Under the pieces are notes generated by a model, which was not told the DNA's origin, ran no database searches, and worked only from the letters and a program-made list of their open reading frames with translations. A program made the position numbers and the translations under genes. Below, in pieces: positions 1,026-19,400 of a stretch of DNA of 64,000 bases. Each line of letters opens with the position of its first letter. Position 1 is the stretch's first letter. The DNA comes from a virus, in the IMG/VR virus record IMGVR_UViG_3300032285_000892, positions 55,149-119,148 of that record. One strand, given 5' to 3'.

Positions 1026-1035
1026 CTGAATTGAT

Positions 1036-1074: not shown

Positions 1075-1097
1075 TGTAATATTTTAAATTATATTTG
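1068..1097 (+). promoter_or_regulatory. Bacteroidota-type promoter for cargo/RNAP operon
   Basis: TTG (1068-1070), 19 bases, then TATATTTG (1090-1097) fit the Bacteroidota sigma pattern TTG-N19/20-TAnnTTTG. The ATG at 1114 lies 17 bases downstream, giving a very short leader. No Shine-Dalgarno is visible. Confidence 0.7.
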
Positions 1098-1113
1098 TTA
1101 ATTATACTAACTC

Positions 1114-3915
1114 ATGGCTTCATTTACAGATTCCATATCGCAATTCAACCCCTACATACAACAGCTTCCTGTTGATATGATGACAAAGGTGGGCATGTAT
1201 AAACAAGCTCAGTACGATCAGGGTGTGCAAAAAATTCAAGGATATATTGATAACATCTCAGGATTAGATATTTCTAGACCTATTGATTCTCAATACTTAA
1301 ATTCTAAGCTTAATGAATTAGGCGGTAAATTAAGAACAGTTGCTGCTGGAGATTTTTCAAATCAGCAATTAGTCAACTCTGTTGGTGGTATGGCCGCACA
1401 GGTTATTAAAGATCCTCATATTCAATCTGCTGTATATTCAACTTCTAATATTAAAAAACAAGAAGAGGTAATGGATAAAGCTAGACAGAAAGGTGAACTA
1501 GCTCCAGAGAATGAAGACTTATATAATACAGAAAGAAACAAGTATTTAAATTCTACAGATTTAGGTGCAAAGTTTGATGGTAAATATATTCCTTATGTAG
1601 ATGTATATAAGATCTTAAAAGAAGTTGCTGCAGATACAGGCATTGATGAGAGCATTATTCCACAGTTATTTGAAACAGATCGTAAAGGTGAGCTTGTAAT
1701 GCAAAAGGTTAAGCAAGCTGATGGTAGTATTAAAGAACAACCCATCATGAATCCTTTAATGGCAGAGAAACATCTTAAAGGTAAGTCTCCTGAGAAGATC
1801 TATCAAGCATTTGAGAACGCATTAACTCCTGCTGCAAGAAGACAATTAGCTATTACAGGTATATATAAAAACAAAAGTTTAACTCCTGAACAACTTGTTC
1901 CTAGAGCTGCTGTTAAATACAATAAACATATTCAAGAAGTTTCATCTGAGATTGATCAAATCAAACTAGCATTATATAATGAGGATAATGGTGATGATAA
2001 AAACTTAACAAAAGTACAAGATCTTGCTGAAGCATATCAGAATAGTAATAAGGTATTAGATAAACTTATTAGTGAAAGAGATAAAAATACTAACATTGAT
2101 TATGTTACTAAAAATGCTGATGCTGTAAGAGCTGATCTTTATAGCACTGATTATCTACAAGGCATTGCTAATCAAATGAAGAGTGTTGCTTCATGGACTG
2201 AATACAAAGTTAGTCCATTGCATACTATTCAAAACGATAATGATAACTTAGCTTTAAGAATTGAAGAAAAAGAAATAAGTATTAATCAATTCAATTACAA
2301 AAAACGTAGAGATATAATTGCTGATGAAAAATGGGCAGCAGAATATTATGCTAAGACTGGAATGACTCCTGATCAAGCAGCAAGACAAGCTGCAGGATTA
2401 GGTGCGCCAGGTACTATTTCAAAACCTTTAGTTATTGAAGGAAATGAAATTGGTATCAAACATGATTTTGAAAATGATTTTACAAATGATGTAGTTGCAA
2501 CAAATCAACTTGGTTTACAATTAACAAAAGAATTTTATAAACAAGCTTTTCCTAATTTAAGTGATTCAGAAGTAGATAAAAAGATGTATAAAGATGCTGC
2601 TGCATCTGGTCAATCACTTGATCCAAATTCTGGAAAACAAAATTCCATGACTACTTTTTATGCTAATAAAATGTTAGCTAAGTGGCAAAATCAAAAAGGA
2701 GGTATTCCTAAGAACATGCTTGAGTCAGTAAATGACTATAGTCAATTAGTTAAATCAGTTGCTGACAAAGGTAATTATATTCGAACTGTAGAAAAAAGAG
2801 CTCTTGAAGAAGCCAAGGCGTCAGGTATTGATGTTGAAAGTTATAAAAATGCAATAGCTACTGTAAAGCCTGCTATTATGAAAATAATTGATCCTAGTAT
2901 TCCTCAAACAGGTATTGCAAAACGTAATAAATCTGTTGCATTGAGTAAAGAAGATGTAATAGATTTTACTAGAATAATTCCAGAACGCTTTAATGAGCTT
3001 GGTTCATTTACAATAGATGATGATCAAGAATCTGCTAAGAGACAAGCAATAAATAGATTAAAGTTAAAGTTTGGAGATTTAGTTTTTTATCAATTAGCAG
3101 AAGATTTAACTGGTAAAAACTTTGATCCTAATTTTAAAGAACGTCTTAAATTTAATAAAGTTGCACTACAGTCAGGAGCCAATCCTGAAATAGATAGAGT
3201 AGGAGAGATATTACATGGTTCAAAAAATCTAGCTATATCAAAAATAATAGGATCTACTTATGCTAAAGATGGTTACGTACCAGTCCCTGTATCTCATCCT
3301 ATATTATCAGGTAAAGATAATGAAGGTGTTGTAACTGCTAAGCAAGCTGCTATTATTGGTAAGTATCCAGAAGCTAATGAAATAGAAGGATATGATCAAG
3401 CAAAATATAATGAAGTGTTAGGTGGAAAAATAACAGGACGTTATGTAGATATTAATATGGTGGGGGGAGTTCCTCAATATGATATGGTAACTGTTTCTGA
3501 TAAAGGAACTGCTAAAGTTAGAATCAGTGCTGACGACTATGCATCATTAGGATATAAGCCTTATAATAAAAATGAGACTCCTACAATGTTCCTTAATCTA
3601 AATGCTACTGGAACAACTAATAAGAAACCTTCATCAGATGCTCGTACAGATCGTACTACTGCAGAGTGGGGAGTTAGTCAATTTAAAAGAACAAAGAAAT
3701 GGGATGTTGCTGGAGATATAGTTTCAGAACCAAGAAATCCTAATCTTGCTTATGTAAAGTTATATGTATCAAAAAAAGGAAGTAATGAGGTCACTCCATA
3801 TTTTATTCCAGTACAAAAGATTATAGATGGTAAATTAAATGTTGATTTGGTTAATACACCATTAACAATCACAGATGATTTTATTGATAACTTAGTAAAA
3901 CAAAATAACAAGTAA
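1114..3915 (+). CDS. Putative virion cargo protein upstream of virion RNAP
   Basis: This 933-residue soluble protein is Lys/Asp/Gln-rich and mostly helical in appearance, with no signal peptide, membrane segment or recognised enzyme motif. The N-terminus (MASFTDSISQFNPYIQQLP, then a Met/Tyr/Gln-rich helix) resembles, from memory, proteins encoded just upstream of the giant RNAP gene in crAss-like phages, which are packaged and ejected with the DNA. Its stop overlaps the RNAP gene's start (TAATG), so the two are translationally coupled. The start is supported by the promoter 17 bases upstream. The cargo role is inferred from position and general family resemblance. Confidence 0.55.
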   Translation: MASFTDSISQFNPYIQQLPVDMMTKVGMYKQAQYDQGVQKIQGYIDNISGLDISRPIDSQYLNSKLNELGGKLRTVAAGDFSNQQLVNSVGGMAAQVIKDPHIQSAVYSTSNIKKQEEVMDKARQKGELAPENEDLYNTERNKYLNSTDLGAKFDGKYIPYVDVYKILKEVAADTGIDESIIPQLFETDRKGELVMQKVKQADGSIKEQPIMNPLMAEKHLKGKSPEKIYQAFENALTPAARRQLAITGIYKNKSLTPEQLVPRAAVKYNKHIQEVSSEIDQIKLALYNEDNGDDKNLTKVQDLAEAYQNSNKVLDKLISERDKNTNIDYVTKNADAVRADLYSTDYLQGIANQMKSVASWTEYKVSPLHTIQNDNDNLALRIEEKEISINQFNYKKRRDIIADEKWAAEYYAKTGMTPDQAARQAAGLGAPGTISKPLVIEGNEIGIKHDFENDFTNDVVATNQLGLQLTKEFYKQAFPNLSDSEVDKKMYKDAAASGQSLDPNSGKQNSMTTFYANKMLAKWQNQKGGIPKNMLESVNDYSQLVKSVADKGNYIRTVEKRALEEAKASGIDVESYKNAIATVKPAIMKIIDPSIPQTGIAKRNKSVALSKEDVIDFTRIIPERFNELGSFTIDDDQESAKRQAINRLKLKFGDLVFYQLAEDLTGKNFDPNFKERLKFNKVALQSGANPEIDRVGEILHGSKNLAISKIIGSTYAKDGYVPVPVSHPILSGKDNEGVVTAKQAAIIGKYPEANEIEGYDQAKYNEVLGGKITGRYVDINMVGGVPQYDMVTVSDKGTAKVRISADDYASLGYKPYNKNETPTMFLNLNATGTTNKKPSSDARTDRTTAEWGVSQFKRTKKWDVAGDIVSEPRNPNLAYVKLYVSKKGSNEVTPYFIPVQKIIDGKLNVDLVNTPLTITDDFIDNLVKQNNK

Positions 3916-6900
3916 TGGCAGATCAATTACCAGAGCAATTAAAACCTGTAAACTTAGCGGCATACATGCCTAGTAGAGTACCAGATCTTTCTGCACTAGT
4001 ACAGAGTGGTAATGTTGGTGGAGGTGAGCCAGATTTAGATATTGCAAGTCAGTTTCAATCTCTTATATCTCAAAACTCTAGCAAAGGTAATCCTCTGCCT
4101 GTGGTCTCTGGTGGTGATGTAGATTTTTCTGGTCGTTACCCATTGTTCTATACAGATAGAGACAATGAAGAAATGTATGCTCAAGCTCAAAGCTTTGGTG
4201 AAAAAGCATACAATGGTATTGCTAAGTTTACTGGTGTCACTACAGCAGCATTTCTTAATGGTACTGTTGGAGTAGTTGATGGTATATATAGTGCTATACA
4301 TGATTGGGATGCTTCTAAGTTTTGGAAGAATGATACATCTATAGCTCTAAATGATTGGACTAAGAATATGGAAGATTCTTACGCACATTATAAAACATTG
4401 CGTGAGAGAAACGGTAACTGGTGGGAGCCTGAGAATTTATTCACAGGTAATATGTTCTTTGATAATATTGTAAAGAATTTAGGATACACTGTAGGTTCTA
4501 TGGGAGCTGGAGTTGTCTGGGGAGGAGCATTGGGTCTTATTGGTAAAGCTGCAAAGTTATCTGCATATGGTACTGAAGCTGCTTCTATAGCAGATAGTAT
4601 TATTGCTGAAGGTGCTATGACAGGAGATGCAGCATCTATTGCTTCTAGTTCAGCCAAACTTGATGGAGCATTATCTAGTTTCCAAGCTAAGCTTGGTAAA
4701 GCTATGTTAGGATCAAATAGAGCAATAGTTGCTGCTACAGGTACTGCTGGTGAAGCAGGCTTTGAAGCATTGAATAACTCTCAAGAATTCAGACAAAGAA
4801 TGATTGATCAATTTAAAGCTACTCATGGTTATTCTCCTACAGAAGAAGATTTAAAAACAATTGATCAGTATGCTACTAGTGTTGGTAACTATAGCTGGTT
4901 AGCTAATTCAGCTTTGTTAACTGCTACTAACTATATCCAACTTCCTAAGATATTCTCATCTACATTCAAAGGTGAAAGATCTATTGCCAACACAATGCTC
5001 AGTGAAGGTAAGTGGGTATCTTCTTTAGCTGATAAAGGTATTGGAAAGTTTGCAACTAAGGCAAAGAACGTTGCTGGTTTATTCTTTGCTAAATCAGAAG
5101 CATTTGAAGAAGGTGCACAGTTTGCTATTCAAACTGGTACACAAAATTACTTTGATAAAAAATACAAAGGTGAAGGTGCATCTATTCTTAATGATGCAAT
5201 TGGACATGGTATTAAAGAAGCAGTAAGCACAGATGAAGGTTTATTAAATATCTTTCTTGGTGGTTTCTCTGGAGGTATGTCCATGGCTTATGGTAATATC
5301 AAACAAAGAGGAGTAACAGGATATGGTGGTCAAGAAGCTAAACTTAGAAACGAAGCTCTTGGTGCTTGGAAAGATTCAATGCTTACTGATAAACTTAAAG
5401 CATCTGTCAATGATATCAGGATTGCTGAAGCTGTACAAGAAGAAAGGAAGCAGGCTATTATTGATAACGACATTCAATTAGCTAAAGATAAAGAGTTTGA
5501 TTACGCACATACATTTATCAGATCTCGTTTGAGATATGGTGCTAAAGAAGCTATCGATGCAGAAATTGCTGACTTAAAGCAACGTGCTATAACTGATTTC
5601 ATCAAGTTACAGACAGAAGGTATAGCTGCTAATACAGATACAAAAGAAGCATTCTTAAATCGTTTAGAAACAGTTCAGCAACAAGCTAATGATGCTGCTA
5701 AGTTAAAAGAAGCTCTTGATGTTAAATACAAAGGCATTGTTGATCCTACTACAGGCAAACGTGCATACTCAGATGCTACTCTTGAGAAGTTATTATATGC
5801 TGGATCTAAGATCTCAGATTACAATAGACGTATCCCTCAACTAGATCAATCATTAGCTTCTTATGGAATCAGTACAACTGATGCATTAACTGAAGTGGTA
5901 GATACAGGAACTCTTTCTAAGGAAACTCAGGATGAGGTAATGAATGCTATTCAATCATTAACTAAATCTGGTATAGATTCTGATATTCAAGATACACTTA
6001 CTACAGACTTCAACGACATGATGAAGCTTGGTGTATTAAGAAAGAAGTTCTTAGAAGAATACAACAACCTTAAAACTACTCCTGAGAAGTTTGATAAACT
6101 AGATGAGAAGGCTGAAGAAGATAATAAGCCAGTAGATGAGAATGCTCCTAAAGAAGTTGTAACATACAAGAACGAAGAAGGAGAAGATGCTACACTTGAT
6201 ACTAATGAAGAGTATTACATTGGTACAGAAGCTAAGAACCGTAAAGATAAAACTGTTTATAGCTTCAAGAAGTTTACAGTATTGGGTGAGAATGAAGACG
6301 GTACCATTAAGGTTAAGACTGACGAAGGCGAAATAAAAAGTATTGACAAATCTTGGTTTACTGATAATGGTAAATACTTAGGTAAGACTAGTGATGTTAA
6401 AGCTGATCCAAAGAAAAGATTCTTTTTAAATAATAGAAACACTGTTTACACTTTTAACTTTGGTAAAGATAAAGGTGGAGAAGTAAATGGACGATTGAGA
6501 TATTCTGAGAAAGAAGGAGTATTAGAATTTGTTTATCTAGATAAGAAAGGAAAAGAAAGATCTCTTGAAGTTACAGGTGATCAGTTTACACCTAAGCCAG
6601 GATATAAGCAAGCAATCATTCGTGCAACAGCAGTAATGTCCCCATTACAAAAAGCTTCAGAAGAAGAGTTCATTGCAGATTCTAAAAACGATCCTCGTGT
6701 ATTAGAAAAAATTGCAAAACGTGCTGCCTTGTTAGAGACATTCTTTGATGAGATGGCTGAGAATCTTGCTAAGACTAAACGTATGGTTGAGTCTAAGAAA
6801 AGAGAACTCAACAAAACAGTAGAGAAGATCAAAGGTTTAAGAAAAACAGTGGAGGGCCCTGAGGCAATCACTGCTAAAACTAAACGGATTAAAGCTACTG

Positions 6901-9900
6901 TTCACACTGCTATTCAAAACATTGCATCCTTAACAAAGATGCAAGATCAGTTAAATGACGAGATCAAAAGTCTTGAAGCAGAACAAGAGCAATTAGAAAT
7001 CAATCTTGAGTATGTAACTGACTTAGCTTCTAGGTTAGATGAAATGCCAGCAGATCTTACTAAGTTCTATGCTGTTGTTAGACAAGAACGCAATGCATTA
7101 AAAGAAACCATATTAGAAAAAGGTAAGTTGATGAACGCTCTCCATAGAGTTATGGAGAACTTAGAATCTGCTCTTCAAAGCTTGATTAATCAAGTGATGG
7201 ATTTGATTGGTGGTTTTGAAACTAAGTATCCTGGCTTACCAATGAGTGCAAGTCAGATCAGTGAGTTCTTAACATACTTTAAAGGTAAGCCTTGGGAAAG
7301 ACCTTCCTTCATGAGCGTACATCCTGAGCTTATTCCTGACTTACAAGAACTAGATGCAGAGGTTGCACAAATTGATGAGATACAGATTACTCCTAAACAA
7401 GCTGCTATTGATAAAACATTAGAAGACATTATTACTTTAGAAGAGGAACTCACTCAATTAGATAAACAATTAAAAGCTGTTAGTGAAGTAGATACAAGAC
7501 TTAGAAAGATCTATGATGAGTATGTAGCTGGAATAAAGGAGACTGAAGACATCAAGAAAAACAAGGAGTTAAAAGAACAGGCTTTAGGAACTATTGATAA
7601 TAGTTTAGCTAATGTTCAATATGATAGAGCGTATAACCCTAGTAGTAAAAAAGCTACTGCAGTTATTCCTAATGCTACAATTGCTCCTTCTGAAGAATCT
7701 GAAGGTAAGCCATTAGCTGAACATCATTTACGTGCTAACTTGTTTGGTGCTAAGCTAGAAAATCTTCCTAATAGAGGAAACATTCAAGCTGTATATGTAA
7801 CTAAAGGTAATGAAGCTGAGTTAGGATTACCTGGCTTAATGGATGATCTTAAAGGAGACGCTGAAGGATTCTCTTCTAGTGATACTATTGCAATTGTAAT
7901 GGTACAGATGGTAGATGGTAAACCACGTCCTGTAGGAATTGATGGTGAAGTATTAGAAACTCCTAGCTTTGAGAATGCTATCTTCCAAGTAAAACCCACT
8001 GCTGAAAAGCTTGGTGATTTGTTTAGAGATGAGAAAGAAGGTGGCCCAACTAAAGATCAAAAGGATTTTATTGTTAATGAATACAGAGCTTGGAGAAAAG
8101 AAACTTTAGCAAATCCTTCATTAACTGCTTATCCTGTTGATGCATCGTTTGGTATTCCTGTACGTGAATCTTCATTAGATAGTGAACAAAACAAAGTGAT
8201 TGATTACACTGCTTCTACAGACGTAGTGTCTGCAGGACTTGTTGCTTCTAATGATAAGAAGAATGATCTTTCTACTAAGCAATTAGTCACTGTACCTACA
8301 ACAGAAGGCACGTTAAACCAAGGAACAACTAGCTATGCTAATCCAGTTGGTAGACCATTCTTGACTCTACCTAATGGTAATGTACCATTGAAAAATAGAA
8401 ACCTTACTAAGGCTGAAGCTGAGACAATCTATCAAGCTCTATTAAGACTTGCTATGCTTAAAAACTTCAAGTCTGATGAGGCTGTTAGATTAATGGACTG
8501 GTTGAGAACTATTGTATATTGGGGAGTTCCTAAAAACAATCCAGGATACAGCAGCTTATTCTTTAATGTTAAAGAAGATGGTACGTTAGCATTGTTTATC
8601 TCTGGTAAGGGAACAAACATTCCTTTCACTACATCTTCTATCAAATCTAATAAAGATAATCTATTAACTCTTCTAGGAGGTATGTATAACAATACCAATT
8701 CTAGATTAGTAGATAATGAAGAAGACTATAGAAAACCTTATGAGGAGATTGTATCTGTCTCTGAGGATGGCACTGTTCAATCTGTAACATGGAAGAACTA
8801 CCAAACCTATCTATTGTCTCCTAAGAATCCTGATGGATCAATTCGTAAGAATATTCCTCTAACAGTAGCAATGCATCCTATCACAGGAGAGAATGATACA
8901 AACAGAGAAGGTATTTACTTTATTGTAAATAGTAATGCTGATAGATATGCTATTCCTGATGTTCCTGCTGTATCGGCAGCACTAACTCCTATTGCTTCTA
9001 CAAGAGTACTAGGTGCAACACCAGTTGCACAACAAGCACCTGCACCAGCTGCACAACCTGCTACTCAATACAAGTTTGATGGTGAAACAGAGAACACAGC
9101 AATGGTTCATGGCAAGCCTGTTAAGTTTATTATAGATGCGGCTAAGTTTGATGATGAAGGATTTGTTAGTTTAGATATTGATAAGTCTGCTGCTGTAGCT
9201 ATTGGTAAAGCTATTGGCTCACAAGATGCTGATGAAATTGAGGCAGAAGCTGGTAATACAATCTATGCTGCTATCTATAAAGAATTAAAAGCTGCACAAG
9301 CTCCTGCTCCTGTAGTATCTACACCAGTTGCTGATGTAGCAGCTGCACCAGTTGTACAAACACCTGCTGCTTCTACAGATGCTAGTGCTGATACAATGGC
9401 TAAGATTAAAGCTATGCAGGGTGGAGCTATTCCTAATGAGTTCCGTGTAGCTATTAATAACTCTAATCAGAAAAGATTTGAGAGAGAAGATTGGAAGAAG
9501 TTTGAGAACTGGTTAAAGACTACGTTCCCTAATGTTCCTGTGTATCGTGTTAAGAATGTAATTCAAGCAACTAATGGTCAACAGGCTTGGGGTATGTTTA
9601 AGAATGGTGCCATCTATGTATATGAGAATGCTGAGGTTGGTACAGGATACCATGAAGTATTTGAGGCTGTATGGAAGATGTTCTCTGATAAAGATGAACG
9701 TGCTAATGTAATTAACGAATTCAAACAAAGAAGTGGAACATTCACTGATCGTCCTAGTGGAAGAACAGTTAACTATAAAGATGCTACAGATCAAGAGATC
9801 AAAGAACAATTAGCTGAAGAGTTTAGAGATTATGTATTAAAAGGTAAGATACCTGCTAAGCCTACACAAGGAAGACCGTTCATTGTTAAACTATTTGCTG

Positions 9901-12900
9901 ATTTAGTAAACTTCATCAAAGAATTCTTTACAGGAAAGAAAGCAGAGATTAATACAGCAAACTTATTTGATAAGATTGGTAGAGGATATTATAAACAATA
10001 TTCTCCGTATGAATCCAAACTTGCCTTTGCCAAAGAAGGAATCATTGATATAGAAGATGCGTATGCTGATTCTGAAAGTGACTTCCGTGTAGCTGGATTT
10101 ACAAGTGGTCAAGAGCATGATGTCATGCAAGAGATGACTTACTTAACTCTAGCTGAGCTTACAACTACTAACAAATCTTTATTCAATATCTCCGACACTG
10201 TATTCAAGAAAGATGAGCATTACAATAAGTTAAAGACTTATATGCTTACCACTCTTGCTAATGCTATTCAAGTAGTACAAGAAGATACAACCAAAGGAGA
10301 TAAGGAAAAACAAACTGATATTGATAACTATGCTGCATTGTTTGAGAACATTGATAACCAATGGCCTGCATTAGTTCAAAGACATGCTGAGTATCTAGTT
10401 CCTTACAATGTTGAGTTTGATGAGAATGATCATATTACATTAAAGGATGAAGACAACTCTGGTAAAGAATTGTATCAAGATGCTAATAAGATTGATGCAT
10501 TTAGAAAAGCAAACTCTGCTGTTAAGTTATTGTTGTCAACAATCCCAAGAGTAGATACAACAGGTAAACCTACGTTATCTTCTATTGGTGGACACACCCT
10601 TATTCCTTATTCTGAAATTAGTGTTTCATTAATGAATAAGATTGCTTCTTCTCGCACTGTAGATCAGATGGTTCAGAGGATTGCAGATATGGCTAAGAAT
10701 GACATCAAGTATAAAGTGTTGTACCAACGTATCACTAGATCTAAAGCATATCCTAATGGTGATGATTATACAAATCCTAGATTCAGTCTTAATCAACTTG
10801 GCGAAGAGCATGAGGTACGTTTAATTAATACACTATGGCGTACGTTTAAGAAAAACAATCCAGAGGTATTAAATCTTTATGTATTAGATAATGGTGAGGT
10901 TCAAGTAGGTGATTCTAATTTCACTACTGCTTCAGCACAAGTGTTTAATGATTTCCAAGAAAGCATTGTTGAGTCTGTTAGAAATAATAAGAGTCCGTTC
11001 TTTGTTTACTCTGCTGAAGCTAGAGGTTACATTGGTGTTGCAGGATCTGCTAGTAAGCCCTTGAGTAGTACTGCTGCTAGGGTTAAGTTCTTAAAAGATT
11101 TAGGTATATCATTCACTGCTAAAGAAATAGATAAGCTTGCTTCAAAAAAGGATTTTACAAGATTTAATAAAGCTGTAGATGGTATTCGTACCAGTATCAA
11201 TGAGGCAGATAAGATTGCTACAATTAGTGGTAAGACTGTTGACATTACAGGTAGATTAAAACAATTAGCTGAGATAAGAGCTAAGATTGATAACCCTGAG
11301 TTTAGTAGCACGTACTTTAATATTAATGGTGAGCGTGTACAAGTGTTTATTGGTACTAATGCCAACAGTGATTTGTATGATGCTTTAGCTAATATTGATA
11401 ACTTGAATGACTTAAAAGGTTCACAATACGGATACCTTACTACAGATTCATTTGTAAAAGGTTCAGTGAAACTGAATGCTATGTTTGATCCTGAAACTGG
11501 AGAACGTATTGAAGGAGCACAACAGTTATTAAAGAGTACCTACGCTGATGGTACAGTTAACTCTGCTAAGGGTAAGAGAAAGTCTTCTTCTAAGTTAACA
11601 TATAAAGAACGTCTTGTTCAACAAATGAACATGATGTTAGAAGGATATTATCCTAACCTTGTTCCTGGAGATGCTTCTATGGAGCAAATGGTATACATGG
11701 GTAATGAGTTCTCTGCAAAAGATATGGCAAACTTTGAGAACAAGATCATGCCTGTCTTTAGAGATTACTTCTTAAGTGAAGTGAATCTATCTAAAGAAGA
11801 TCGTCCTGTAGTTAGAGGAAATACAACAGACTTACGTTTCTTCAAACCTATCTTAGCTGATAATAATGCTAAGACTGAAGAAGAACGTAACTCTTTACAT
11901 ACTGATATAGTTAAAGCTATTAAAGAAGGTGGTAGTGCAGAAAGTATCTACAAATCATTTGATAGCAGAATAACAAAAGCAGTGAAGGACTTCATTACTT
12001 CTGAGAGTGGCAATCTTCAGGACTTATTAGAGTTCTACGGCATCTTAACTGAAGAAGAAGGAAGCTATAACTTTGAGAACATTGCTATTGGTAAAGATCT
12101 CAATACAGATGAGATGAACAGACAAGTACAAGCAATTGCTGTCAACTTCATGATTAATAATATTGAACTTCATAAGTTATTATACTCTGATCCATATCAG
12201 TATCTAGATGAGTTAAAGCGTATCAAGAACTTCATTTCTCCAAGACAGTCTATCATTAGTCAGTCTCCAGCAATGAACTCTGCTATGGATAACGTTTACA
12301 ATAAAAGATATAGTAAGGAAGTAGATAAAGATGGTAACCTTATAGATATTGGTAATACTAATTTCTTAAAGGATTCATTTACATCCATCACTCTTTCTGA
12401 TGTAAATGCTGTTGATCCAAAGTTAAAAGGATACATAGAAGAAGCTTACAAAGAGACTGACGGTGGTGGTGTCATCATGTATAAGGCTTATCGTAACTTC
12501 CGTATTCGTGCTGGAGAATGGAATGATCTAGAAGAGAAGCAGTATCGTTATGATATTGCTTGGGAGAAGATGGACAAAGGATTGTTTGATCAGATGTCTG
12601 ATTATGAGCAAGAGTTATTAAATGAAGGTAATCCTCAAGTGAAGAGTGCTTACACGCCTATCAAACCTATTGTATCTGGTAACAAAGCTAACGGTAGAGA
12701 TTACAATGATGTAATGCTTGATAAGTTTGCCCTTTATCCTTTATCTTACAGAATTCAAAAAGAAATTAATAGTACATCTAATGCTATCAAGTTGTATGAC
12801 AAGATGCAGAAAGAGAATATTGACTATGCTGTATTCAGTAGTAGTAGAAAGGTAGGAGCTGAAGAGACAAATGATTTGTACAATCCTGAAACTGGAGACT

Positions 12901-15900
12901 TTGTTAACGAGCCATTCAAAGGATTAATCGAAGTTCCATTTGCCATCATGAGTATTCAATCTGAGGTTCCTTCTAAGGACACTGCAGACATCACTCGTGG
13001 TTCTCAAGTAACTAAGTTAATCACTCTTGACTTAATGCAAGCAGGTGTTCCTGTAGACTTTAAGTCTAATGTAAAAGACTTTGCAAAAAGATATGAAGCT
13101 TGGTACAACCTATCAGATGCTGAAAGAATGAAACAATCTGAGTTATACACTGAGATTGTTAATAATCAAAAATATCTTGAGCTTATCATGGAGAACGGAT
13201 TTAATGTTCTATTAGATAAGTTAGGTATTACAGTTACTAAGACTGGAGCTTACAAGATATCAGATGTTGCAAAGCTAGAGAAAACTCTTCGTGATGAAAT
13301 GTTGAAGAGAGAGATCAATGATAACATTTCAGATGCTTTAACTGGATTCTTAAATGGTGATGTTGTTCTTGAGGCTACTCCTGCTTACCAACAAATCAGA
13401 AACATTTTATACTCTATTGCAGATAAGAATGTAATGTCTCCTACAATCTCTGGAGGTATGAAGGTACAGATCTCTCCTGCATTGTTAGAGAGTGTCAAAG
13501 CCAAAGCTATAACAGATAAAAAAGGCAAGACTGCATATGTTAATGATACACTAGACTTCTATGAATTAGAAGAAGGTGGTAAGAAGATTAAGGTGTGTGA
13601 GATCTTGGTAGGTAGATGGTTCAATAGTGATATGAGTGATGAGGCATTACTTAAGTATCTAAATACCACAGATGAAGGAAAGAAAATCTTATCTGGCTTA
13701 GCATATCGTATCCCTTCACAAAAGCAGAACTCTATTGATGTATTCCGTATTAAGAAGTTTCTTCCTAAAGAGTTTGGTGACTCAGTAGTTATTCCATCAC
13801 AACTAGTAAACAAAGCAGGATCTGACTTTGACATAGATAAGTTGAACATCTACTTTAAGTCCTTGTTCATTAATCTTGAAGGTAAGCCAGAGATGTTTAA
13901 ATATCAAGGATCTGAGCAAGCTACTAAAGATTACTATGGTAACATGTTTGATACATTGATTCAAAGTAAAGAATCTAATGTACTTAAGCAATTACTAAAT
14001 CTATCTTTTAGTGAGTTTGATGATCCTGAATATGAAGCTAAGTTGCAAGATAGATTAGAAAAGATTGATAAGAGTAAGATCAATCGTGAGAACTTTATTA
14101 ACAATGCTTATAGAAGATCTCTCGAGAATGAATACATTCAGTCTTCTGAGAACCTAGCTAGTCATCCTGCTAACTTTGAGCAGTTAACTAAACCTAACTC
14201 TTCAAAAGACTTCCAAGACTTATCTATTGAAATTGTTGACAAGCTTGGTAAGAAAACTTTTGACTATTCATCTACAGGTAACATGTTAAGTATTCCGTTC
14301 ATGACTGAACTAAGACATGCTTTTGTTACAGGTAAATATGCAATTGGTATTGCTGCTCAAGCACAAACTAATCACTCATTGAATCAACGTCAACCAATGT
14401 ACATTGATCCTGAGAGAAGAAAGTTAGCTGATGAAGTTGATAGAAAATGGTTAGGTAACGGTGAGGTTAATTTTGAGCAATACAATAAGATTGACATCAA
14501 AGGTAAGATGTACCCTACTTTATCATTCATCAAGAATGCTATTGGAGAAAACATCTCTGACTTAATTAGTCAGTTTATTGATGGCTATGTAGATATCTCT
14601 AAGGGTCCTTGGATCATGGCAATGGGTGCTACACCAAACGTTGCTGGTACATGGATGTTCTTAACTAAGATTGGTGTACCTATCAAAACTGTAGGATACT
14701 TCATGAACCAACCTATTGTTCGTGATTACTTATTGTCTATTGAGAAGGCTGGTTACTCATACTTGTTTATGGATGACTTTGTTGATGCTGCTAAAGCTAA
14801 CTATAAAACATCATCTACTAATCAAATTAAAACTATTCCTTCTGAATCTGCATTAGGTAAGATGCTTGGTAATACAGAATTAACTGAAGATCAAAAAGCA
14901 GAACAACAATTCATCTTAGATGAGTTCTTGAAATATGCTAAGATGGCAGAACAGTTATTCTTAGTTGCTCAAGGATCTAACTATGATACAGCTACATTCA
15001 GCGATGGTTATTTAGTATTCAAGAAACAAATTCAATTAGAGAAAGCACAAAGATCTATTATTACATCTGTAGATGATCTATTAAAAAACTCATTCATTGG
15101 TAGACTTAAGGAGCTTACAGGCGATGTGCGTAATGCATTAGCAGAAACAGTATTAAAATCTGACGAACCATCTAGAGTGAGAGGTGTTGTACAGAAGGTA
15201 TTAAGACCTTATGTAAACATGAATGATAGAGACTTTGTTAAGGTGGCACAGACTGTTGTATCTAACTTGTTTGACTGGGCAGTACAAATTGATTCGGGAC
15301 TGAATAGCAGAATCAAGACCATCTTAATAGGTGATGAGAAGAATAAAACAGCTGTTGCAGGTGAAGTGATGAAGTATGTTAATGATATCAAGGAAGATTC
15401 AGAACATCCTTTATTTAATAACTATGCTATAGAATTGTTCTCTTCTAAGTATGCACAGTCTGAAGGTAAAGTGAACAACTTGATTGTTAAGAACAAAGAC
15501 AACCAAGTGTATAATCAGAATCAATTGATTTATGCATTTGAAGAAATCAAAGCTGACAATCCTGAGATCTATGGTAAGATGGTGAGACTTGCAGTGTTAC
15601 AATCTGGTTTAACTAACTCAGGTATATCATTTACATTCTTACTTCCTTATAAAGACTTCAAAGCAGTTTATAATAAAACCTTGTCTGTTATCGAAGAATT
15701 TGCTAACTTAGATGACTTCTATGAGATGAATGTATTTGAGAGAAACAATTGGAATAACTCAGATATGGTTCCTTATGTAAAAGCTAACTGGATTCAATCT
15801 AAGAAGACTGGTAAATTTTATTACAATCCAGGAATGTCATTTATTGACAAAGGAATTAATACTGCTATAAGACAAGGAACCGTTCCACAATTACTTCAGT

Positions 15901-16409
15901 TATCTCCATATGGAGCAGCTGCTGATAAAGATGTTATTGTTTACTCATGGGAAGAGGGAACTAAGAATGAGAAGAAAGCAATGAGAGCTGCTAATGATTA
16001 CTCTTACATCAAGAAAGGATTATTTAAAAGAGTATATCAAGGTGGCACACCATTAATTCATACATACACAAGTTCTGATGGAACTGTTAGAGAGAACTAT
16101 GTATACAAGATGATGAACGCATGGGGTCAAGCAATGAATGCTAATGAGTTCTACATTGGACCAAGAGCTTCAGTAATTGAGAATGGATTTGAGAAAGTAT
16201 TTGCATCCACTACAGTTATCGAACCGTCTAAAGGAATCTTCTTCACTAATGTAACTAGTGATGAGGTGAGTGACGATCCAGTAGTTAGCTTATACAACAA
16301 CACTCCATTGCCTACAGCTACTAATGAATTGATTGAAAATCCTGTTAAAGAAGGACAAACTGAAGACTGGCAAGAAGAAGATAACACTTGCACTAACCCA
16401 ATTGGATAA
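3915..16409 (+). CDS. Giant virion protein with single-chain RNA polymerase core
   Basis: This 4,164-residue protein should transcribe phage early genes after being injected with the DNA. Order of parts: Gly/Ala-rich hydrophobic segments (about 184-215 and 446-460), possibly membrane-interacting; long charged coiled coils (about 945-1215); Pro/Ala linkers (about 1700-1718 and 1792-1822); a zincin-like segment with HEVFE at 1913-1917 and LAEEFRDYV near 1966; then the polymerase core. The core has KPIVSG at K2917 and LDKFALYPL at K2937 (candidate beta-like lysines). RIPSQ at 3265-3269 is followed 39 residues later by SDFDIDKL, with D3304, D3306 and D3308 as metal ligands. The spacing and sequence parallel the RQPTLH...ADFDGD pair of cellular beta'. 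DFDID is, as I recall, the motif of the crAss-like phi14:2 virion RNAP gp66. That protein is about half this length, so extra functions are fused here. TAATG coupling to the previous gene. Confidence 0.85.
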   Translation: MADQLPEQLKPVNLAAYMPSRVPDLSALVQSGNVGGGEPDLDIASQFQSLISQNSSKGNPLPVVSGGDVDFSGRYPLFYTDRDNEEMYAQAQSFGEKAYNGIAKFTGVTTAAFLNGTVGVVDGIYSAIHDWDASKFWKNDTSIALNDWTKNMEDSYAHYKTLRERNGNWWEPENLFTGNMFFDNIVKNLGYTVGSMGAGVVWGGALGLIGKAAKLSAYGTEAASIADSIIAEGAMTGDAASIASSSAKLDGALSSFQAKLGKAMLGSNRAIVAATGTAGEAGFEALNNSQEFRQRMIDQFKATHGYSPTEEDLKTIDQYATSVGNYSWLANSALLTATNYIQLPKIFSSTFKGERSIANTMLSEGKWVSSLADKGIGKFATKAKNVAGLFFAKSEAFEEGAQFAIQTGTQNYFDKKYKGEGASILNDAIGHGIKEAVSTDEGLLNIFLGGFSGGMSMAYGNIKQRGVTGYGGQEAKLRNEALGAWKDSMLTDKLKASVNDIRIAEAVQEERKQAIIDNDIQLAKDKEFDYAHTFIRSRLRYGAKEAIDAEIADLKQRAITDFIKLQTEGIAANTDTKEAFLNRLETVQQQANDAAKLKEALDVKYKGIVDPTTGKRAYSDATLEKLLYAGSKISDYNRRIPQLDQSLASYGISTTDALTEVVDTGTLSKETQDEVMNAIQSLTKSGIDSDIQDTLTTDFNDMMKLGVLRKKFLEEYNNLKTTPEKFDKLDEKAEEDNKPVDENAPKEVVTYKNEEGEDATLDTNEEYYIGTEAKNRKDKTVYSFKKFTVLGENEDGTIKVKTDEGEIKSIDKSWFTDNGKYLGKTSDVKADPKKRFFLNNRNTVYTFNFGKDKGGEVNGRLRYSEKEGVLEFVYLDKKGKERSLEVTGDQFTPKPGYKQAIIRATAVMSPLQKASEEEFIADSKNDPRVLEKIAKRAALLETFFDEMAENLAKTKRMVESKKRELNKTVEKIKGLRKTVEGPEAITAKTKRIKATVHTAIQNIASLTKMQDQLNDEIKSLEAEQEQLEINLEYVTDLASRLDEMPADLTKFYAVVRQERNALKETILEKGKLMNALHRVMENLESALQSLINQVMDLIGGFETKYPGLPMSASQISEFLTYFKGKPWERPSFMSVHPELIPDLQELDAEVAQIDEIQITPKQAAIDKTLEDIITLEEELTQLDKQLKAVSEVDTRLRKIYDEYVAGIKETEDIKKNKELKEQALGTIDNSLANVQYDRAYNPSSKKATAVIPNATIAPSEESEGKPLAEHHLRANLFGAKLENLPNRGNIQAVYVTKGNEAELGLPGLMDDLKGDAEGFSSSDTIAIVMVQMVDGKPRPVGIDGEVLETPSFENAIFQVKPTAEKLGDLFRDEKEGGPTKDQKDFIVNEYRAWRKETLANPSLTAYPVDASFGIPVRESSLDSEQNKVIDYTASTDVVSAGLVASNDKKNDLSTKQLVTVPTTEGTLNQGTTSYANPVGRPFLTLPNGNVPLKNRNLTKAEAETIYQALLRLAMLKNFKSDEAVRLMDWLRTIVYWGVPKNNPGYSSLFFNVKEDGTLALFISGKGTNIPFTTSSIKSNKDNLLTLLGGMYNNTNSRLVDNEEDYRKPYEEIVSVSEDGTVQSVTWKNYQTYLLSPKNPDGSIRKNIPLTVAMHPITGENDTNREGIYFIVNSNADRYAIPDVPAVSAALTPIASTRVLGATPVAQQAPAPAAQPATQYKFDGETENTAMVHGKPVKFIIDAAKFDDEGFVSLDIDKSAAVAIGKAIGSQDADEIEAEAGNTIYAAIYKELKAAQAPAPVVSTPVADVAAAPVVQTPAASTDASADTMAKIKAMQGGAIPNEFRVAINNSNQKRFEREDWKKFENWLKTTFPNVPVYRVKNVIQATNGQQAWGMFKNGAIYVYENAEVGTGYHEVFEAVWKMFSDKDERANVINEFKQRSGTFTDRPSGRTVNYKDATDQEIKEQLAEEFRDYVLKGKIPAKPTQGRPFIVKLFADLVNFIKEFFTGKKAEINTANLFDKIGRGYYKQYSPYESKLAFAKEGIIDIEDAYADSESDFRVAGFTSGQEHDVMQEMTYLTLAELTTTNKSLFNISDTVFKKDEHYNKLKTYMLTTLANAIQVVQEDTTKGDKEKQTDIDNYAALFENIDNQWPALVQRHAEYLVPYNVEFDENDHITLKDEDNSGKELYQDANKIDAFRKANSAVKLLLSTIPRVDTTGKPTLSSIGGHTLIPYSEISVSLMNKIASSRTVDQMVQRIADMAKNDIKYKVLYQRITRSKAYPNGDDYTNPRFSLNQLGEEHEVRLINTLWRTFKKNNPEVLNLYVLDNGEVQVGDSNFTTASAQVFNDFQESIVESVRNNKSPFFVYSAEARGYIGVAGSASKPLSSTAARVKFLKDLGISFTAKEIDKLASKKDFTRFNKAVDGIRTSINEADKIATISGKTVDITGRLKQLAEIRAKIDNPEFSSTYFNINGERVQVFIGTNANSDLYDALANIDNLNDLKGSQYGYLTTDSFVKGSVKLNAMFDPETGERIEGAQQLLKSTYADGTVNSAKGKRKSSSKLTYKERLVQQMNMMLEGYYPNLVPGDASMEQMVYMGNEFSAKDMANFENKIMPVFRDYFLSEVNLSKEDRPVVRGNTTDLRFFKPILADNNAKTEEERNSLHTDIVKAIKEGGSAESIYKSFDSRITKAVKDFITSESGNLQDLLEFYGILTEEEGSYNFENIAIGKDLNTDEMNRQVQAIAVNFMINNIELHKLLYSDPYQYLDELKRIKNFISPRQSIISQSPAMNSAMDNVYNKRYSKEVDKDGNLIDIGNTNFLKDSFTSITLSDVNAVDPKLKGYIEEAYKETDGGGVIMYKAYRNFRIRAGEWNDLEEKQYRYDIAWEKMDKGLFDQMSDYEQELLNEGNPQVKSAYTPIKPIVSGNKANGRDYNDVMLDKFALYPLSYRIQKEINSTSNAIKLYDKMQKENIDYAVFSSSRKVGAEETNDLYNPETGDFVNEPFKGLIEVPFAIMSIQSEVPSKDTADITRGSQVTKLITLDLMQAGVPVDFKSNVKDFAKRYEAWYNLSDAERMKQSELYTEIVNNQKYLELIMENGFNVLLDKLGITVTKTGAYKISDVAKLEKTLRDEMLKREINDNISDALTGFLNGDVVLEATPAYQQIRNILYSIADKNVMSPTISGGMKVQISPALLESVKAKAITDKKGKTAYVNDTLDFYELEEGGKKIKVCEILVGRWFNSDMSDEALLKYLNTTDEGKKILSGLAYRIPSQKQNSIDVFRIKKFLPKEFGDSVVIPSQLVNKAGSDFDIDKLNIYFKSLFINLEGKPEMFKYQGSEQATKDYYGNMFDTLIQSKESNVLKQLLNLSFSEFDDPEYEAKLQDRLEKIDKSKINRENFINNAYRRSLENEYIQSSENLASHPANFEQLTKPNSSKDFQDLSIEIVDKLGKKTFDYSSTGNMLSIPFMTELRHAFVTGKYAIGIAAQAQTNHSLNQRQPMYIDPERRKLADEVDRKWLGNGEVNFEQYNKIDIKGKMYPTLSFIKNAIGENISDLISQFIDGYVDISKGPWIMAMGATPNVAGTWMFLTKIGVPIKTVGYFMNQPIVRDYLLSIEKAGYSYLFMDDFVDAAKANYKTSSTNQIKTIPSESALGKMLGNTELTEDQKAEQQFILDEFLKYAKMAEQLFLVAQGSNYDTATFSDGYLVFKKQIQLEKAQRSIITSVDDLLKNSFIGRLKELTGDVRNALAETVLKSDEPSRVRGVVQKVLRPYVNMNDRDFVKVAQTVVSNLFDWAVQIDSGLNSRIKTILIGDEKNKTAVAGEVMKYVNDIKEDSEHPLFNNYAIELFSSKYAQSEGKVNNLIVKNKDNQVYNQNQLIYAFEEIKADNPEIYGKMVRLAVLQSGLTNSGISFTFLLPYKDFKAVYNKTLSVIEEFANLDDFYEMNVFERNNWNNSDMVPYVKANWIQSKKTGKFYYNPGMSFIDKGINTAIRQGTVPQLLQLSPYGAAADKDVIVYSWEEGTKNEKKAMRAANDYSYIKKGLFKRVYQGGTPLIHTYTSSDGTVRENYVYKMMNAWGQAMNANEFYIGPRASVIENGFEKVFASTTVIEPSKGIFFTNVTSDEVSDDPVVSLYNNTPLPTATNELIENPVKEGQTEDWQEEDNTCTNPIG

Positions 16410-16411: not shown

Positions 16412-19400
16412 ATGAGTACTTGTAAAGACACACAAAAGTTTAGGACATCTGAAGCATCCACTAAAGCAGCAATGCGTACACAGGGTGCTATAGATGGATT
16501 TTTGAACATACTCGATTTGGGTTTATTTAGAACGCTTAATGGTAAGTGGTCTAGAGATGCTAAGGAAAGATTCAACGTGCAAGAGATGTTATTCTTTGAA
16601 GAGGATAATGGTAGAAAAGCCAAACCTAATAAGCCAGCATTCAAACAAATTGATAATGCTAAAGGCATCTACTATCAAGAAGATGGGATGGCTCAATCAG
16701 TTGCAGACTCTCAGGTAATTGCTAATGTCAAGAAGCTTTTAGATAAGATGGGTGTGTCTATTCAGGACATATCTACTTATGCTAAGGAAGCTGGATTGGA
16801 TGTAACAGGGATCAATGGTATTGCTGATTTAACAAGAGGTATCATTGCTCTAGCTGATGGTAAAGAAGCTGCTGCTATTACAGAGGAGATGGTTCACATT
16901 GCCACTGCTATTATAGAGAAGAGAAATCCTGGAATGATTACAGAGATGATCTCTAAGATTGATCGGTTCAAGATATATAATGAAACATTAAAACAATACA
17001 AAGACAATCCTAAGTATCAACTACCTACTGGCAAACCTGACATTCGTAAGATTAAGAAGGAAGCTGTAGACAAATTAATCTCTGAGTTAATTATTAATGG
17101 TGGTAATCCGTCTGAGTCTTTCCCAGAACTTGCAGAAGATGTTGAAAGATCTACTATTCAGATCTGGTGGAACAAGATACTTGATTGGTTTAGAGGACAA
17201 TATAAAAACGCAAACATTGATATCTTTCAAGAAGCTAAGGAACAAATCTTAGAAGGAGATTTAGGAACTGTACAAGAAGCTGGTCTTGAAGGAACGTACT
17301 ATCAGTTAAGTGATGAGCAACAAAAGATTATAAACAATCTTAAAAATACAGGATTAATTAAAACAGAATCTGAAGAAAAAACAGATCCTGTTCTAATGGA
17401 TACAGAAGAAGCTACTAGCTTCTATGAAGTACAGAATGCTGAAGGTACATTAACTCGTGTTAAGAACAGGGTTACTGACTTGGTTAAAAACTATTACAAT
17501 AGTATTCCTGCATTCAGAAACAAAACTTTTACACCAGAAGAACAGAAGTTCAATGATCTTAAAAGAAGACTAGGTATTAGAGGCCATAAAGATTTTGAAT
17601 TAATCCATGGTAGATACTTTAATGAAGATGGTACAAAGAGAACAAGTCCTCTTCCACGTCCAGAAAAGTTTGATAATTTATCTGAAGACATGTACATATT
17701 GCTTGAGCAATACTACGTTGACTTAGTTAATAGTTTACCAAAGGATACAATTATTCTATCTGAGGTAAAGGTATATGATCCTAAAGCAGATAGAGCTGGT
17801 ACGATTGACTTCTTGGCTATTGATCCTACTGGTAAAGCTCACATCCTTGACTGGAAGTTTATGCAGATCAATGGTGATGATGTTGCATGGTTTAAGAAAG
17901 GAGCATATGATGTTCAGTTAGGAGAGTATAAAAAAATCCTACGTGAGAACTATGGTATCACTCAGTTTGGAATGAACAGAGCTATTCCTATCTCTATGGA
18001 ATTCCAATATCAAACTAAAGGAGATAAGTCATCACCACTAGTTCTTAAGAGTATTGCTATTGGAAGTGTTGATAAGTCTAAGTCTGTACCGTTATATCTA
18101 CAACCTGTACCTGAATCAAGTGAGTCTACAGGGTTTGCAGAACTAGATACATTGGTTAGTAAGTTGACAGCATTACTTAATGACTTAAGCAATGTAAGAT
18201 CTAAGACTGAAGACGAGCGTGAGTTCAAGATTGAATCTTTAAACACTCTTAGAAAAGCTATTAGACTTCTTCAAGTGACACAAGATAGGCAACCTTTGAT
18301 TCATGCAATTGAAGTAATGCGTCAAGAAGGAGAGCAGATCACAGATGATTACAAGATGATCTATGATAAGATGCCTGCTAAGTCTACTGATGTAGATAAT
18401 GCATCTTTATCTGACTTTGCTAATAAGATGAATGACTATATCAAGAACTCTGATATATTTGCAAACATTGGAGATCAGATTGGACATCTCATCTATACTG
18501 AAGACATGGATGCTTTAGCTAAAACTAAAGAGGAGAAAGCATTAGTTGAAAGTAGAAAAAGCACATTAAAGAACTTAGAAGCTGAATCTAAGAAAATTAG
18601 AATGTCTAAGACTGACATCATTGAATCAGCTAAGAAGTTCAATGATAAGTTTGTAGGACAGAGAAATAACATTACTGGTATTCTTAAACCTGAAGCTGTT
18701 GTAAAAGGATTAGTTTCTTGGTTTAGAGGAGTATCTGAATTAAGTTCTGCTTCTTTGAATGCATTGTATTCATTATATTCTAAAGGAGTGAGTGAAGCAA
18801 ATGCTAATGCGTTAGTTAATGTCAATAAGATAATGGACATTAGAACTAAGCTATTAGAAAGAGGTGGTGATATAAGAGCAATGGTTCGTCAGATCTATCA
18901 GTCAGATGAGAAAGGTGGATTAGTTAATAAACTTATCCGTAAGTATTCTAAAGATTTCTATTCTGAAGTTGATGAGAATGCTAAGAAAGATACAGGTAAG
19001 AAAGACTGGTTAAAGAGTAATGTTGATATTGAAGCTTATAAAGAAGCAGCAAGCAAAAGACTAGAACAAGATATTGCTAGAGTTAAAGCTGGTAAGTATC
19101 CTAAGGGTCAAGAGGAAGAAATCATTGAAGACCTTATTCTAAAGAAGCAACGTTTCTATGATATTGAGCGTGAGGACTTTAATGGTTGGAAGAATCCTTT
19201 ATTAAAGAAATTCCCTAAAGAAAAATGGTTATCAGAAGAATACAAAAAGATATCTAAGGATAAAGAATTGTTTGAGTTATATAACTTCATTGTTGAATTC
19301 AATGAACAGAAAGCTCAACCTTCTGGATACTTAGCTAACCAGACAGCATCTACATTCTTACCTTTCATTAGAAAGAGTATGGCTGAGCAAATCTCTTTTG

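What the first reader, a model, noticed from the sequence alone, without database searches (positions are those of the whole stretch)
3915..16409. 4,164-residue virion protein with a beta'-like RNA polymerase site
RIPSQ (3265-3269) and SDFDIDKL (D3304, D3306, D3308) repeat the order and spacing of the beta' RxPTLH...ADFDGD elements. Candidate beta-type lysines K2917 and K2937 lie about 370 residues before. That places a single-chain RNAP inside a protein roughly twice the length of the crAss-like phi14:2 enzyme, fused to hydrophobic and zincin-like parts.
Basis: partly seen in the sequence, partly recalled or inferred. Interest (0 to 1): 0.75.

Follow-up and report, generated by a model that had tools for sequence, protein, structure and literature searches.

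The report
Giant fused crAss-like phage RNA polymerase

Summary
Residues 2500-3640 are a single-chain two-barrel RNA polymerase homologous to phi14:2 gp66 (PDB 6VR4): a profile without phi14:2 hits 6VR4 at 3.3e-55, and an AlphaFold2 model (pLDDT 86.7) matches it with Z 22.7 over 898 residues, RDR2 and QDE-1 with Z 9.3-11.8. The record is a crassvirus. The ORF is phi14:2 gp67-type plus gp66-type in one chain with a zincin-like domain between. Five of five named Suoliviridae examined have RNAP ORFs of 4,491-5,801 aa, so the length is ordinary. By-product: a coupled switch in the zincin-like domain. HExxE pairs with Lys/Arg at residue 1963 in 56 of 56 sequences, HExxH with Glu in 17 of 21; 9 of 10 independent tree pairs agree (noticed first, tested on the same sequences). 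Virion location and early transcription are inferred by homology, not shown.

The parts
3915..16409 (+). 4,164-aa ORF: gp67-type module + zincin-like domain + two-barrel RNA polymerase (gp66-type); its ATG overlaps the stop of the upstream ORF (TAATG)
4092..6104 (+). residues 60-730: conserved N-terminal module homologous to phi14:2 gp67 and the large RNAP-associated subunit of Steigviridae (cr128_1 gp51, Bcn24_75) and of bajarodcaudo virus 1
   Evidence: profile of 60 clade rows (2 duplicates inside): cr128_1 2.5e-69, phi14:2 gp67 1.2e-21, Lbo-JY46 3.3e-80; Bcn24 and bajarodcaudo; blastp
4479..4541 (+). residues 189-209, the only segment above mean hydropathy 1.3 (weak)
9012..9464 (+). residues 1700-1850: linker rich in Ala/Pro/Thr/Ser (41% against 25% in the whole protein)
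9465..9917 (+). residues 1851-2001: zincin-like domain
   Evidence: model; fold comparison, Z 5.2-7.2; conservation
9651..9665 (+). HEVFE (1913-1917), in place of canonical HExxH
9801..9806 (+). K1963-E1964 on the following conserved helix; residue 1963 co-switches with residue 1917
9990..11411 (+). residues 2026-2499: region matching the N-terminal part of gp66 (weak)
   Evidence: Foldseek 6vr4 E 2.0e-5; VIA Z 7.9 but rmsd 18.5; split point in L046
11412..14834 (+). residues 2500-3640: two-barrel RNAP core
12663..12665 (+). K2917, invariant candidate DPBB-B lysine
12849..12851 (+). K2979 (KVGA), invariant; better second candidate than K2937
13707..13721 (+). RIPSQ (3265-3269)
13821..13844 (+). 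SDFDIDKL (3303-3310), metal-binding triad D3304/D3306/D3308
14292..14384 (+). residues 3460-3490: long helix, probably the bridge-helix region (inference); H3487 not invariant (37 of 51)
16412..21424 (+). 1,670-aa ORF, phi14:2 gp65-type RNAP-associated protein
   Evidence: profile of 57 next-ORFs (4 duplicates inside): cr108_1 4.9e-91, cr128_1 9.8e-32, cr118_1 1.7e-17, phi14:2 gp65 2.6e-7
1114..3915 (+). 933-aa upstream ORF in the cargo-gene position (position is the only ground for 'cargo'); its first 171 residues resemble a Leptolyngbya phage Lbo-JY46 ORF
   Evidence: 4.7e-21

Best explanation
The ORF encodes a Crassvirales virion RNA polymerase of the phi14:2 gp66 type (single chain, two double-psi barrels, DFDID metal triad), fused behind a gp67-type module with a zincin-like domain in between. 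Most likely mechanism: the protein is packed in the capsid together with the gp65-type neighbour; it is ejected in a partly unfolded state ahead of or with the DNA, the gp67-type half helping packaging or passage; the polymerase half refolds in the host and transcribes the early genes without host RNAP. Shown here: homology, predicted fold, active-site conservation, gene order and the fused architecture in relatives. Inferred from phi14:2 and PhicrAss001: virion packaging, ejection and early transcription.
For: tblastn of residues 2196-3395: 112 phage records, phi14:2 gp66 first by coverage (8e-13), best E 5e-21 for cr108_1. A profile of 51 clade sequences with no named crAss-like phage hits 6VR4 at 3.3e-55 and phi14:2 gp66 at 6e-59, cr118_1 4e-50, cr128_1 5e-41 (small database). 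AF2 pLDDT 86.7, pTM 0.84. Foldseek 6vr4 9.3e-33, QDE-1 1.6e-4. VIA: 6vr4 Z 22.7, rmsd 3.7, 898 aligned; RDR2/QDE-1 Z 9.3-11.8; P23-45-type RNAPs Z 7.2-7.9. DFDID, K2917 and K2979 invariant. Crassvirus hallmarks in the same record: TerL, portal, Crass_capsid 1.1e-27, CrAss_Ring_2 1.9e-16. Same order as phi14:2: gp67, gp66, gp65. Halves in one ORF in 73 of 80 related loci.
Against: No transcription, proteomics or infection data exist for this phage. The trigger-loop-like His (H3487) is Leu or Asn in 14 of 51 relatives. The C-terminal 500 residues and residues 1-1850 were not modelled. Residues 2026-2499 match gp66 only weakly (Z 7.9, rmsd 18.5).
Confidence: 0.9

Rival explanations
1. Self-processing polyprotein: the zincin-like domain at the junction cleaves the chain, so that the gp67-type half and the polymerase are separate mature subunits, as they are separate genes in phi14:2.
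For: The domain lies between the modules, next to the A/P/T/S-rich linker. 73 of 73 fused loci carry it. In L046, where the halves are separate genes, and in phi14:2 gp67 and gp66, no HExx[HE] motif was found. PMC5512222 (passages read) proposes autoprocessing for such domains and notes one in N4 vRNAP.
Against: In Bcn24 and cr128_1 the halves are separate genes and the domain is still present. phi14:2 gp65 does carry an HExxH motif elsewhere. PMC5512222 states that N4 vRNAP is packaged unprocessed. The window has HExxE, not HExxH, with Lys at 1963. The zincin fold match is modest (Z 5.2-7.2).
Confidence: 0.22
2. Metal-free or retuned zincin-like domain acting only as a structural or docking part of the fused chain.
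For: 56 of 77 clade members, including this one, have HExxE with K/R at 1963: a Glu-Lys/Arg pair in place of a His and a Glu.
Against: H1913 and E1914 are invariant in 77 of 77, which is odd for a dead site; 21 of 77 keep HExxH.
Confidence: 0.4
3. A polymerase-derived but inactive virion protein.
For: No activity has been shown for this protein.
Against: All three catalytic Asp and both candidate lysines are invariant in 51 of 51 relatives with identities down to 32%.
Confidence: 0.03
4. Chance DxDxD in an unrelated giant protein.
For: DxDxD alone is expected about once in a protein of this length and composition.
Against: 6VR4 at 3.3e-55 with a profile free of phi14:2, Z 22.7 over 898 residues.
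Confidence: 0.005

Closest known systems
Cellulophaga phage phi14:2 gp66, virion RNA polymerase (PDB 6VR4; Steigviridae)
   Same: Homologous single-chain two-barrel polymerase, same DFDID and invariant lysines, same gene order with gp67 before and gp65 after
   Different: gp66 (2,180 aa) and gp67 (1,797 aa) are separate genes in phi14:2 and no HExx[HE] motif was found in either; here one chain of 4,164 aa with a zincin-like domain between. About 22% identity.
RNAP ORFs of Suoliviridae: cr118_1 gp14 (4,946 aa), cr55_1 (4,551), cr130_1 (5,801), cr53_1 (4,645), cr4_1 (4,491)
   Same: Giant chain with zincin-like domain followed by RNAP core (5 of 5); a large ORF follows, matching the gp65-type profile in 4 of 5, not in cr130_1
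   Different: Their N-terminal part did not match the clade's N-terminal profile at E 0.01; their zincin motif is HExxH; three of them (cr130_1, cr53_1, cr4_1) show in-frame stops under table 11.
PhicrAss001 / crAssBcn24 / cr128_1 (Steigviridae) RNAP-associated proteins
   Same: N-terminal module and zincin-like domain lie together in the large 'RNA-polymerase subunit' of Bcn24 and cr128_1; in PhicrAss001, gp47, gp49 and gp50 were found in virions by mass spectrometry (PMC10172136, passages read)
   Different: Polymerase and zincin-bearing subunit are separate genes on opposite strands in Bcn24 and cr128_1.
Virus NIOZ-UU157 (unclassified)
   Same: Nearest named match of the RNAP-core model in BFVD: two fragments at 46 and 51% identity, E 5.7e-48 and 1.2e-39
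   Different: Only predicted-structure fragments were seen; its gene layout was not examined.
Coliphage N4 vRNAP gp50 (about 3,500 aa)
   Same: Giant ejected virion polymerase fused to a zincin-motif domain (PMC5512222, PMC12633501, passages read)
   Different: The polymerase is T7-like, not two-barrel, and its zincin domain follows the polymerase; an analogue, not a homologue.
Thermus phage P23-45 gp96 (tape-measure-fused two-barrel vRNAP)
   Same: Two-barrel vRNAP fused to a large virion protein; fold match Z 7.2-7.5
   Different: Different fusion partner, polymerase N-terminal, no clamp (PMC10770324, abstract and passages read).

Membership tests
Crassvirales (order) | Crassvirus major capsid protein | tested here: met
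   PF23898 at 1.1e-27; 6 of 6 related records examined also over the cut-off, 0 of 14 control genomes
Crassvirales (order) | TerL, P22-like portal and crassvirus tail ring protein in one structural block | tested here: met
   phrog_6681 and phrog_6547; P22_portal 3.8e-10, CrAss_Ring_2 1.9e-16. CrAss_Ring_1 was below its cut-off (22.9 of 27 bits). phrog_37948 is named only 'virion structural protein'; 'muzzle' is my reading
Crassvirales (order) | placement in a named family | tested here: inconclusive
   TerL nearest record Lbo-JY46, 39%; MCP nearest Lbo-JY46, 25%; that record is classified only to Caudoviricetes
crAss-like virion RNAP (phi14:2 gp66 family) | sequence homology over the polymerase core | tested here: met
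crAss-like virion RNAP (phi14:2 gp66 family) | same fold, both barrels in one chain | tested here: met
   VIA Z 22.7, rmsd 3.7, 898 residues, model 1..1129 to chain 560..1687; the barrels were not inspected in coordinates
crAss-like virion RNAP (phi14:2 gp66 family) | DxDxD triad and invariant DPBB-B lysines | tested here: met
   DFDID, K2917 and K2979; the assignment of these lysines to the barrel is inference
crAss-like virion RNAP (phi14:2 gp66 family) | packaged in the virion; [quoted passage not shown]
   no culture, proteomics or transcription data
Zincin metallopeptidases | HExxH motif | tested here: not met
   HEVFE in the window; HExxH in 21 of 77 clade members and in 8 of the 8 named crAss-like domains found by profile among 12 named records examined
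Zincin metallopeptidases | helix - three strands - HExxH helix - helix with Glu | tested here: inconclusive
   predicted order H10-20, E26-29, E43-46, E49-53, H60-73 (HEVFE), later H109-126 (E1964) in a model of pLDDT 71.6; fold matches to zincin peptidases Z 5.2-7.2, under the tool's caution level of 8; no sequence match
Zincin metallopeptidases | zinc binding and peptidase activity | not testable with these tools

The most novel reading that the evidence does not exclude
The zincin-like domain wedged between the gp67-type module and the polymerase exists in two interchangeable forms, HExxH...E and HExxE...K/R. Evolution has exchanged a metal-site His and a helix Glu for a Glu-Lys/Arg pair (or back) about ten times in one phage clade, nearly always together. 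This may be a metal site replaced by a salt bridge while H1913 and E1914 stay invariant: a natural, repeated conversion between a metallopeptidase and a metal-free or retuned form inside giant virion polymerases.
Probability: 0.4. Interest if true: 0.6.

Novelty: new member of a known kind. Interest (0 to 1): 0.36.

Why it matters
The clade supplies dozens of diverse fused sequences for studying how a giant polymerase is packed, ejected and refolded. The coupled HExxE/Lys switch gives a concrete, testable question about what the zincin-like domain does.

Tried and rejected
Single-sequence searches found nothing useful: PHROGs 0 families for this ORF, three Pfam matches below their cut-offs, PDB phmmer only ferredoxin reductases at E 0.68-0.84 and nothing for the core. 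blastn of 3.2 kb against phages gave no match. Alignment A1 contains phi14:2 gp66 itself, so its 6VR4 match is by construction and is not used as evidence; A2 (no named phage) replaces it.

Rejected: 'the length is unusual' (five of five named Suoliviridae examined have RNAP ORFs of 4.5-5.8 kaa); 'zincin-like domain only where fused' as a rule (Bcn24 and cr128_1 break it, and the 4,422-aa RNAP ORF of cr8_1 lacks it); a Pfam hit ATG17_like at 943-1105 (below cut-off, probably coiled coil). Region 1851-2498 gave no relevant solved structure by sequence and no Pfam family matched more than 2 of 52 members. The tree is a quick LG+G4 tree; the tool warns about long outgroup branches, so only within-clade comparisons are used. 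The coupled switch was seen by eye and then tested on the same sequences, so its test is not independent. Papers: Drobysheva 2021 and Yutin 2018 are not held; statements about them come from other papers or recall. Searches of the held library for a zincin in crAss-like RNAPs (6 papers listed, none on this by title and abstract start) and for HExxE (2 papers, likewise) found nothing; subscription papers are not covered.

Full report
OBSERVATION. The ORF 3915..16409 (+) encodes 4,164 residues without stops. DxDxD by itself is uninformative (mean 1.25 per shuffle; 210 of 300 shuffles have one). The ordered RxPx[QH]-(25-45)-DxDxD element appears in 0 of 300 shuffles.

SETTING. The window is positions 55149-119148 of a 119,148-base IMG/VR virus record. 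Upstream of the window the record carries a large terminase (phrog_6681, 1.3e-83), portal (phrog_6547, 2.7e-100; P22_portal 3.8e-10), Crass_capsid (1.1e-27), CrAss_Ring_2 (1.9e-16), a CrAss_Ring_1 match below its cut-off and a large virion structural protein. Six of six related records tested carry Crass_capsid above its cut-off, and none of 14 control genomes does. The nearest record in the phage collection is Leptolyngbya phage Lbo-JY46 by TerL (39%) and by capsid protein (25%). The habitat of the record is not told by the tools.

THE POLYMERASE. tblastn of residues 2196-3395 finds 112 phage records; of the 40 listed most are named crAss-like phages; phi14:2 gp66 is first by coverage (8e-13 over 732 residues) and cr108_1 has the best E (5e-21). 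The best BLAST piece aligns 2565-3604 with gp66 637-1656. RIPSQ and SDFDIDKL align with YRIPNQ and GSDFDIDK of gp66, D3304 with D1361. To avoid circularity I built an alignment (A2, 51 rows) of the window and IMG/VR relatives only. Its profile finds 6VR4 at 3.3e-55, the next chain being at 0.5, and phi14:2 gp66, cr118_1 and cr128_1 at 6e-59, 4e-50 and 5e-41 in a small database. AlphaFold2 on the same rows gives pLDDT 86.7 and pTM 0.84. Foldseek ranks 6vr4 first (9.3e-33, TM 0.66 by query) and QDE-1 next (1.6e-4). VIA gives 6vr4 Z 22.7 (rmsd 3.7, 898 residues), maize and Arabidopsis RDR2 and QDE-1 Z 9.3-11.8, P23-45-type RNAPs Z 7.2-7.9, and cellular beta' chains Z 6-7 over the region around the triad; the last two groups are under the tool's caution level of 8. 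Among predicted viral structures the best match is Virus NIOZ-UU157 (5.7e-48, 46% identity), then many crAss-like phages.

ACTIVE SITE. Across nine rows from the clade and named families (one of them a joined translation, cr108_1), D3304, D3306, D3308, K3309, R3265, P3267, K2917 and K2979 are invariant. K2937 is Lys in 7 of 9, Gln in phi14:2 and Glu in cr128_1. In 51 clade members all three lysines are invariant. So K2917 is a good candidate, and K2979 (KVGA) a better second candidate than K2937. That these are the beta-type barrel lysines is inference. H3487 is His in 37 of 51.

ARCHITECTURE. The N-terminal module (about 60-730) is homologous to phi14:2 gp67 (1.2e-21), cr128_1 gp51 (2.5e-69) and a Leptolyngbya phage protein (3.3e-80) by a profile of 60 rows. 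A linker rich in A/P/T/S (41%) spans 1700-1850, then a zincin-like domain 1851-2001, a gp66 N-terminal-like region (weak), the RNAP core, and a C-terminal region that cr108_1 matches to 3954. The next ORF is gp65-type. So the protein is phi14:2 gp67 and gp66 in one chain, in the gene order of phi14:2. Of 80 related loci examined (84 fetched dropped as duplicates), 73 have the halves in one ORF, 4 are cut by the contig end, and 3 are split or otherwise (L046, L082, L094); 57 complete fused ORFs measure 3,755-4,680 aa, median 4,219.

IS THE FUSION NEW? No. cr118_1 (4,946 aa), cr55_1 (4,551), cr130_1 (5,801), cr53_1 (4,645) and cr4_1 (4,491), all Suoliviridae, have the zincin-like domain and the RNAP core in one ORF, though their N-terminal parts did not match our profile at E 0.01. 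cr8_1 (Intestiviridae) has a 4,422-aa RNAP ORF without the domain. Of the Steigviridae examined, phi14:2, cr106_1, cr128_1 and Bcn24 have separate genes, while cr108_1 has the zincin-like domain and the RNAP in one frame up to a break at the motif. PMC10136315 (passages) speaks of RNAP genes up to about 6,000 aa and calls giant RNAPs a hallmark of the group; [quoted passage not shown] Annotation is uneven: the cr118_1 ORF is called 'exonuclease V' or 'DNA helicase'.

MECHANISM. From PhicrAss001 (PMC10172136, passages): RNAP-associated gp47, gp49 and gp50 are in the virion, probably in the capsid, and must partly unfold to leave through the tail. From PMC7886860 and PMC10136315 (passages): phi14:2 RNAP enters the host with the DNA and transcribes early genes, resistant to rifampicin. 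I infer the same for this protein. The fusion would guarantee equal copy number and ordered delivery of the two halves (inference).

ZINCIN-LIKE DOMAIN. AlphaFold (pLDDT 71.6) predicts the order helix, three strands, helix with HEVFE, and a later helix with E1964, which is the zincin layout described in PMC5512222 (passages). VIA matches zincin peptidases with Z 5.2-7.2 over about 120-150 residues, below the caution level; sequence profiles find nothing. N4 vRNAP, a T7-like enzyme, also carries a HExxH domain, so two unrelated giant virion polymerases share this kind of companion. A separate HExxH motif also occurs in gp65-type or neighbouring proteins of some named crassviruses, phi14:2 gp65 among them, but in only 1 of 57 gp65-type ORFs of this clade and not in the window's.

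COUPLED SWITCH. In 77 clade sequences (window plus 76 loci; 4 of the 80 loci do not cover or lack the domain) the motif begins HE in 77 of 77, and its fifth position is only Glu (56) or His (21). In the 52 rows of A4 the codons there are only GAA, GAG, CAT and CAC. His and Glu codons differ by two bases, and no one-step intermediate residue is seen. Residue 1963, beside the near-invariant E1964 (76 of 77, one Asp), is Lys or Arg in 56 of 56 HExxE rows (47 and 9); in HExxH rows it is Glu in 17 of 21, Lys in 2, Asn in 1 and Val in 1. Glu at both positions never occurs in the 77. Residue 1963 has the highest mutual information with 1917 (0.689 bits), but 1921 (0.615) and 1947 (0.568) follow closely, so shared ancestry contributes. 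On the RNAP-core tree, which excludes these columns, residue 1917 needs 11-12 changes and 1963 needs 9. In 10 independent pairs that differ at 1917, residue 1963 goes the same way in 9, the other way in 0 and does not differ in 1 (sign test p 0.004; 49 rows bear both traits). I noticed the pattern by eye before testing it on the same sequences. Of 12 named records examined, 8 have the domain by profile; all 8 are HExxH, seven with Glu at the 1963 position and cr130_1 with Ala. Two readings fit: a metal site replaced by an ion pair, or a retuned metal site. The invariance of H1913 and E1914 speaks against simple decay.

VERDICT. The protein is a new member of a known kind. The least expected thing is the coupled HExxE/Lys switch, which I did not find in the held library.

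Noticed in passing
window 9651-9665 and 9801-9806; 76 related loci: Coupled HExxH/Glu to HExxE/Lys-Arg switch in the zincin-like domain (17 of 21 and 56 of 56; 9 of 10 independent pairs).
   Followed up: yes
L094:1133-8254: A related RNAP ORF starts with an ART-PolyVal-like stretch (5.5e-5, 24.4 bits, below Pfam's cut-off of 31.2) where others have the zincin-like domain: possible domain swap.
   Followed up: partly
L120 (Leptolyngbya phage Lbo-JY46, 60000-109999): A phage recorded from a cyanobacterium has a capsid protein and TerL related to the window phage's, and gp67-type and gp65-type proteins, but no RNAP core was found with our profile. The search had no positive control among very divergent crassviruses, so loss is not shown.
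   Followed up: partly
L008:16365-16656; L125:17197-18092: In cr108_1 and bajarodcaudo virus 1 the RNAP ORF is interrupted at or next to the DFDID motif; in the latter an annotated endonuclease lies in the gap. This looks like a self-splicing intron, a feature reported for crAss-like phages (PMC7886860, passages).
   Followed up: no
L002 gp65 (245), L122, L124, L126, L128 next-ORFs, L125 other: A second HExxH motif (such as ILHEIMH) in gp65-type or neighbouring proteins of several named crassviruses, present in only 1 of 57 gp65-type ORFs of the window's clade.
   Followed up: partly
Virus NIOZ-UU157 (BFVD): Nearest named relative of the RNAP core (46-51% identity over fragments); [quoted passage not shown]
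   Followed up: no
window 21549-28217: A 2,222-aa ORF full of collagen-like triplets (Pfam Collagen 2.6e-101, 17 stretches; tandem repeats); another collagen-like ORF with a Peptidase_S74 domain lies at L098:3-1730.
   Followed up: no
window 34063-39331 and 53063-53824, - strand: Four glycosyltransferase-like ORFs, not checked for a role.
   Followed up: no
L102 (Chitinophaga sp. YR573, 4.83-Mb contig): A relative covering nearly the whole RNAP core (31%) lies in a bacterial chromosome-size contig, suggesting an integrated crass-like element.
   Followed up: no
L046:466-12962: One clade member has the two halves as separate overlapping genes, as in phi14:2, and lacks the zincin-like motif.
   Followed up: partly
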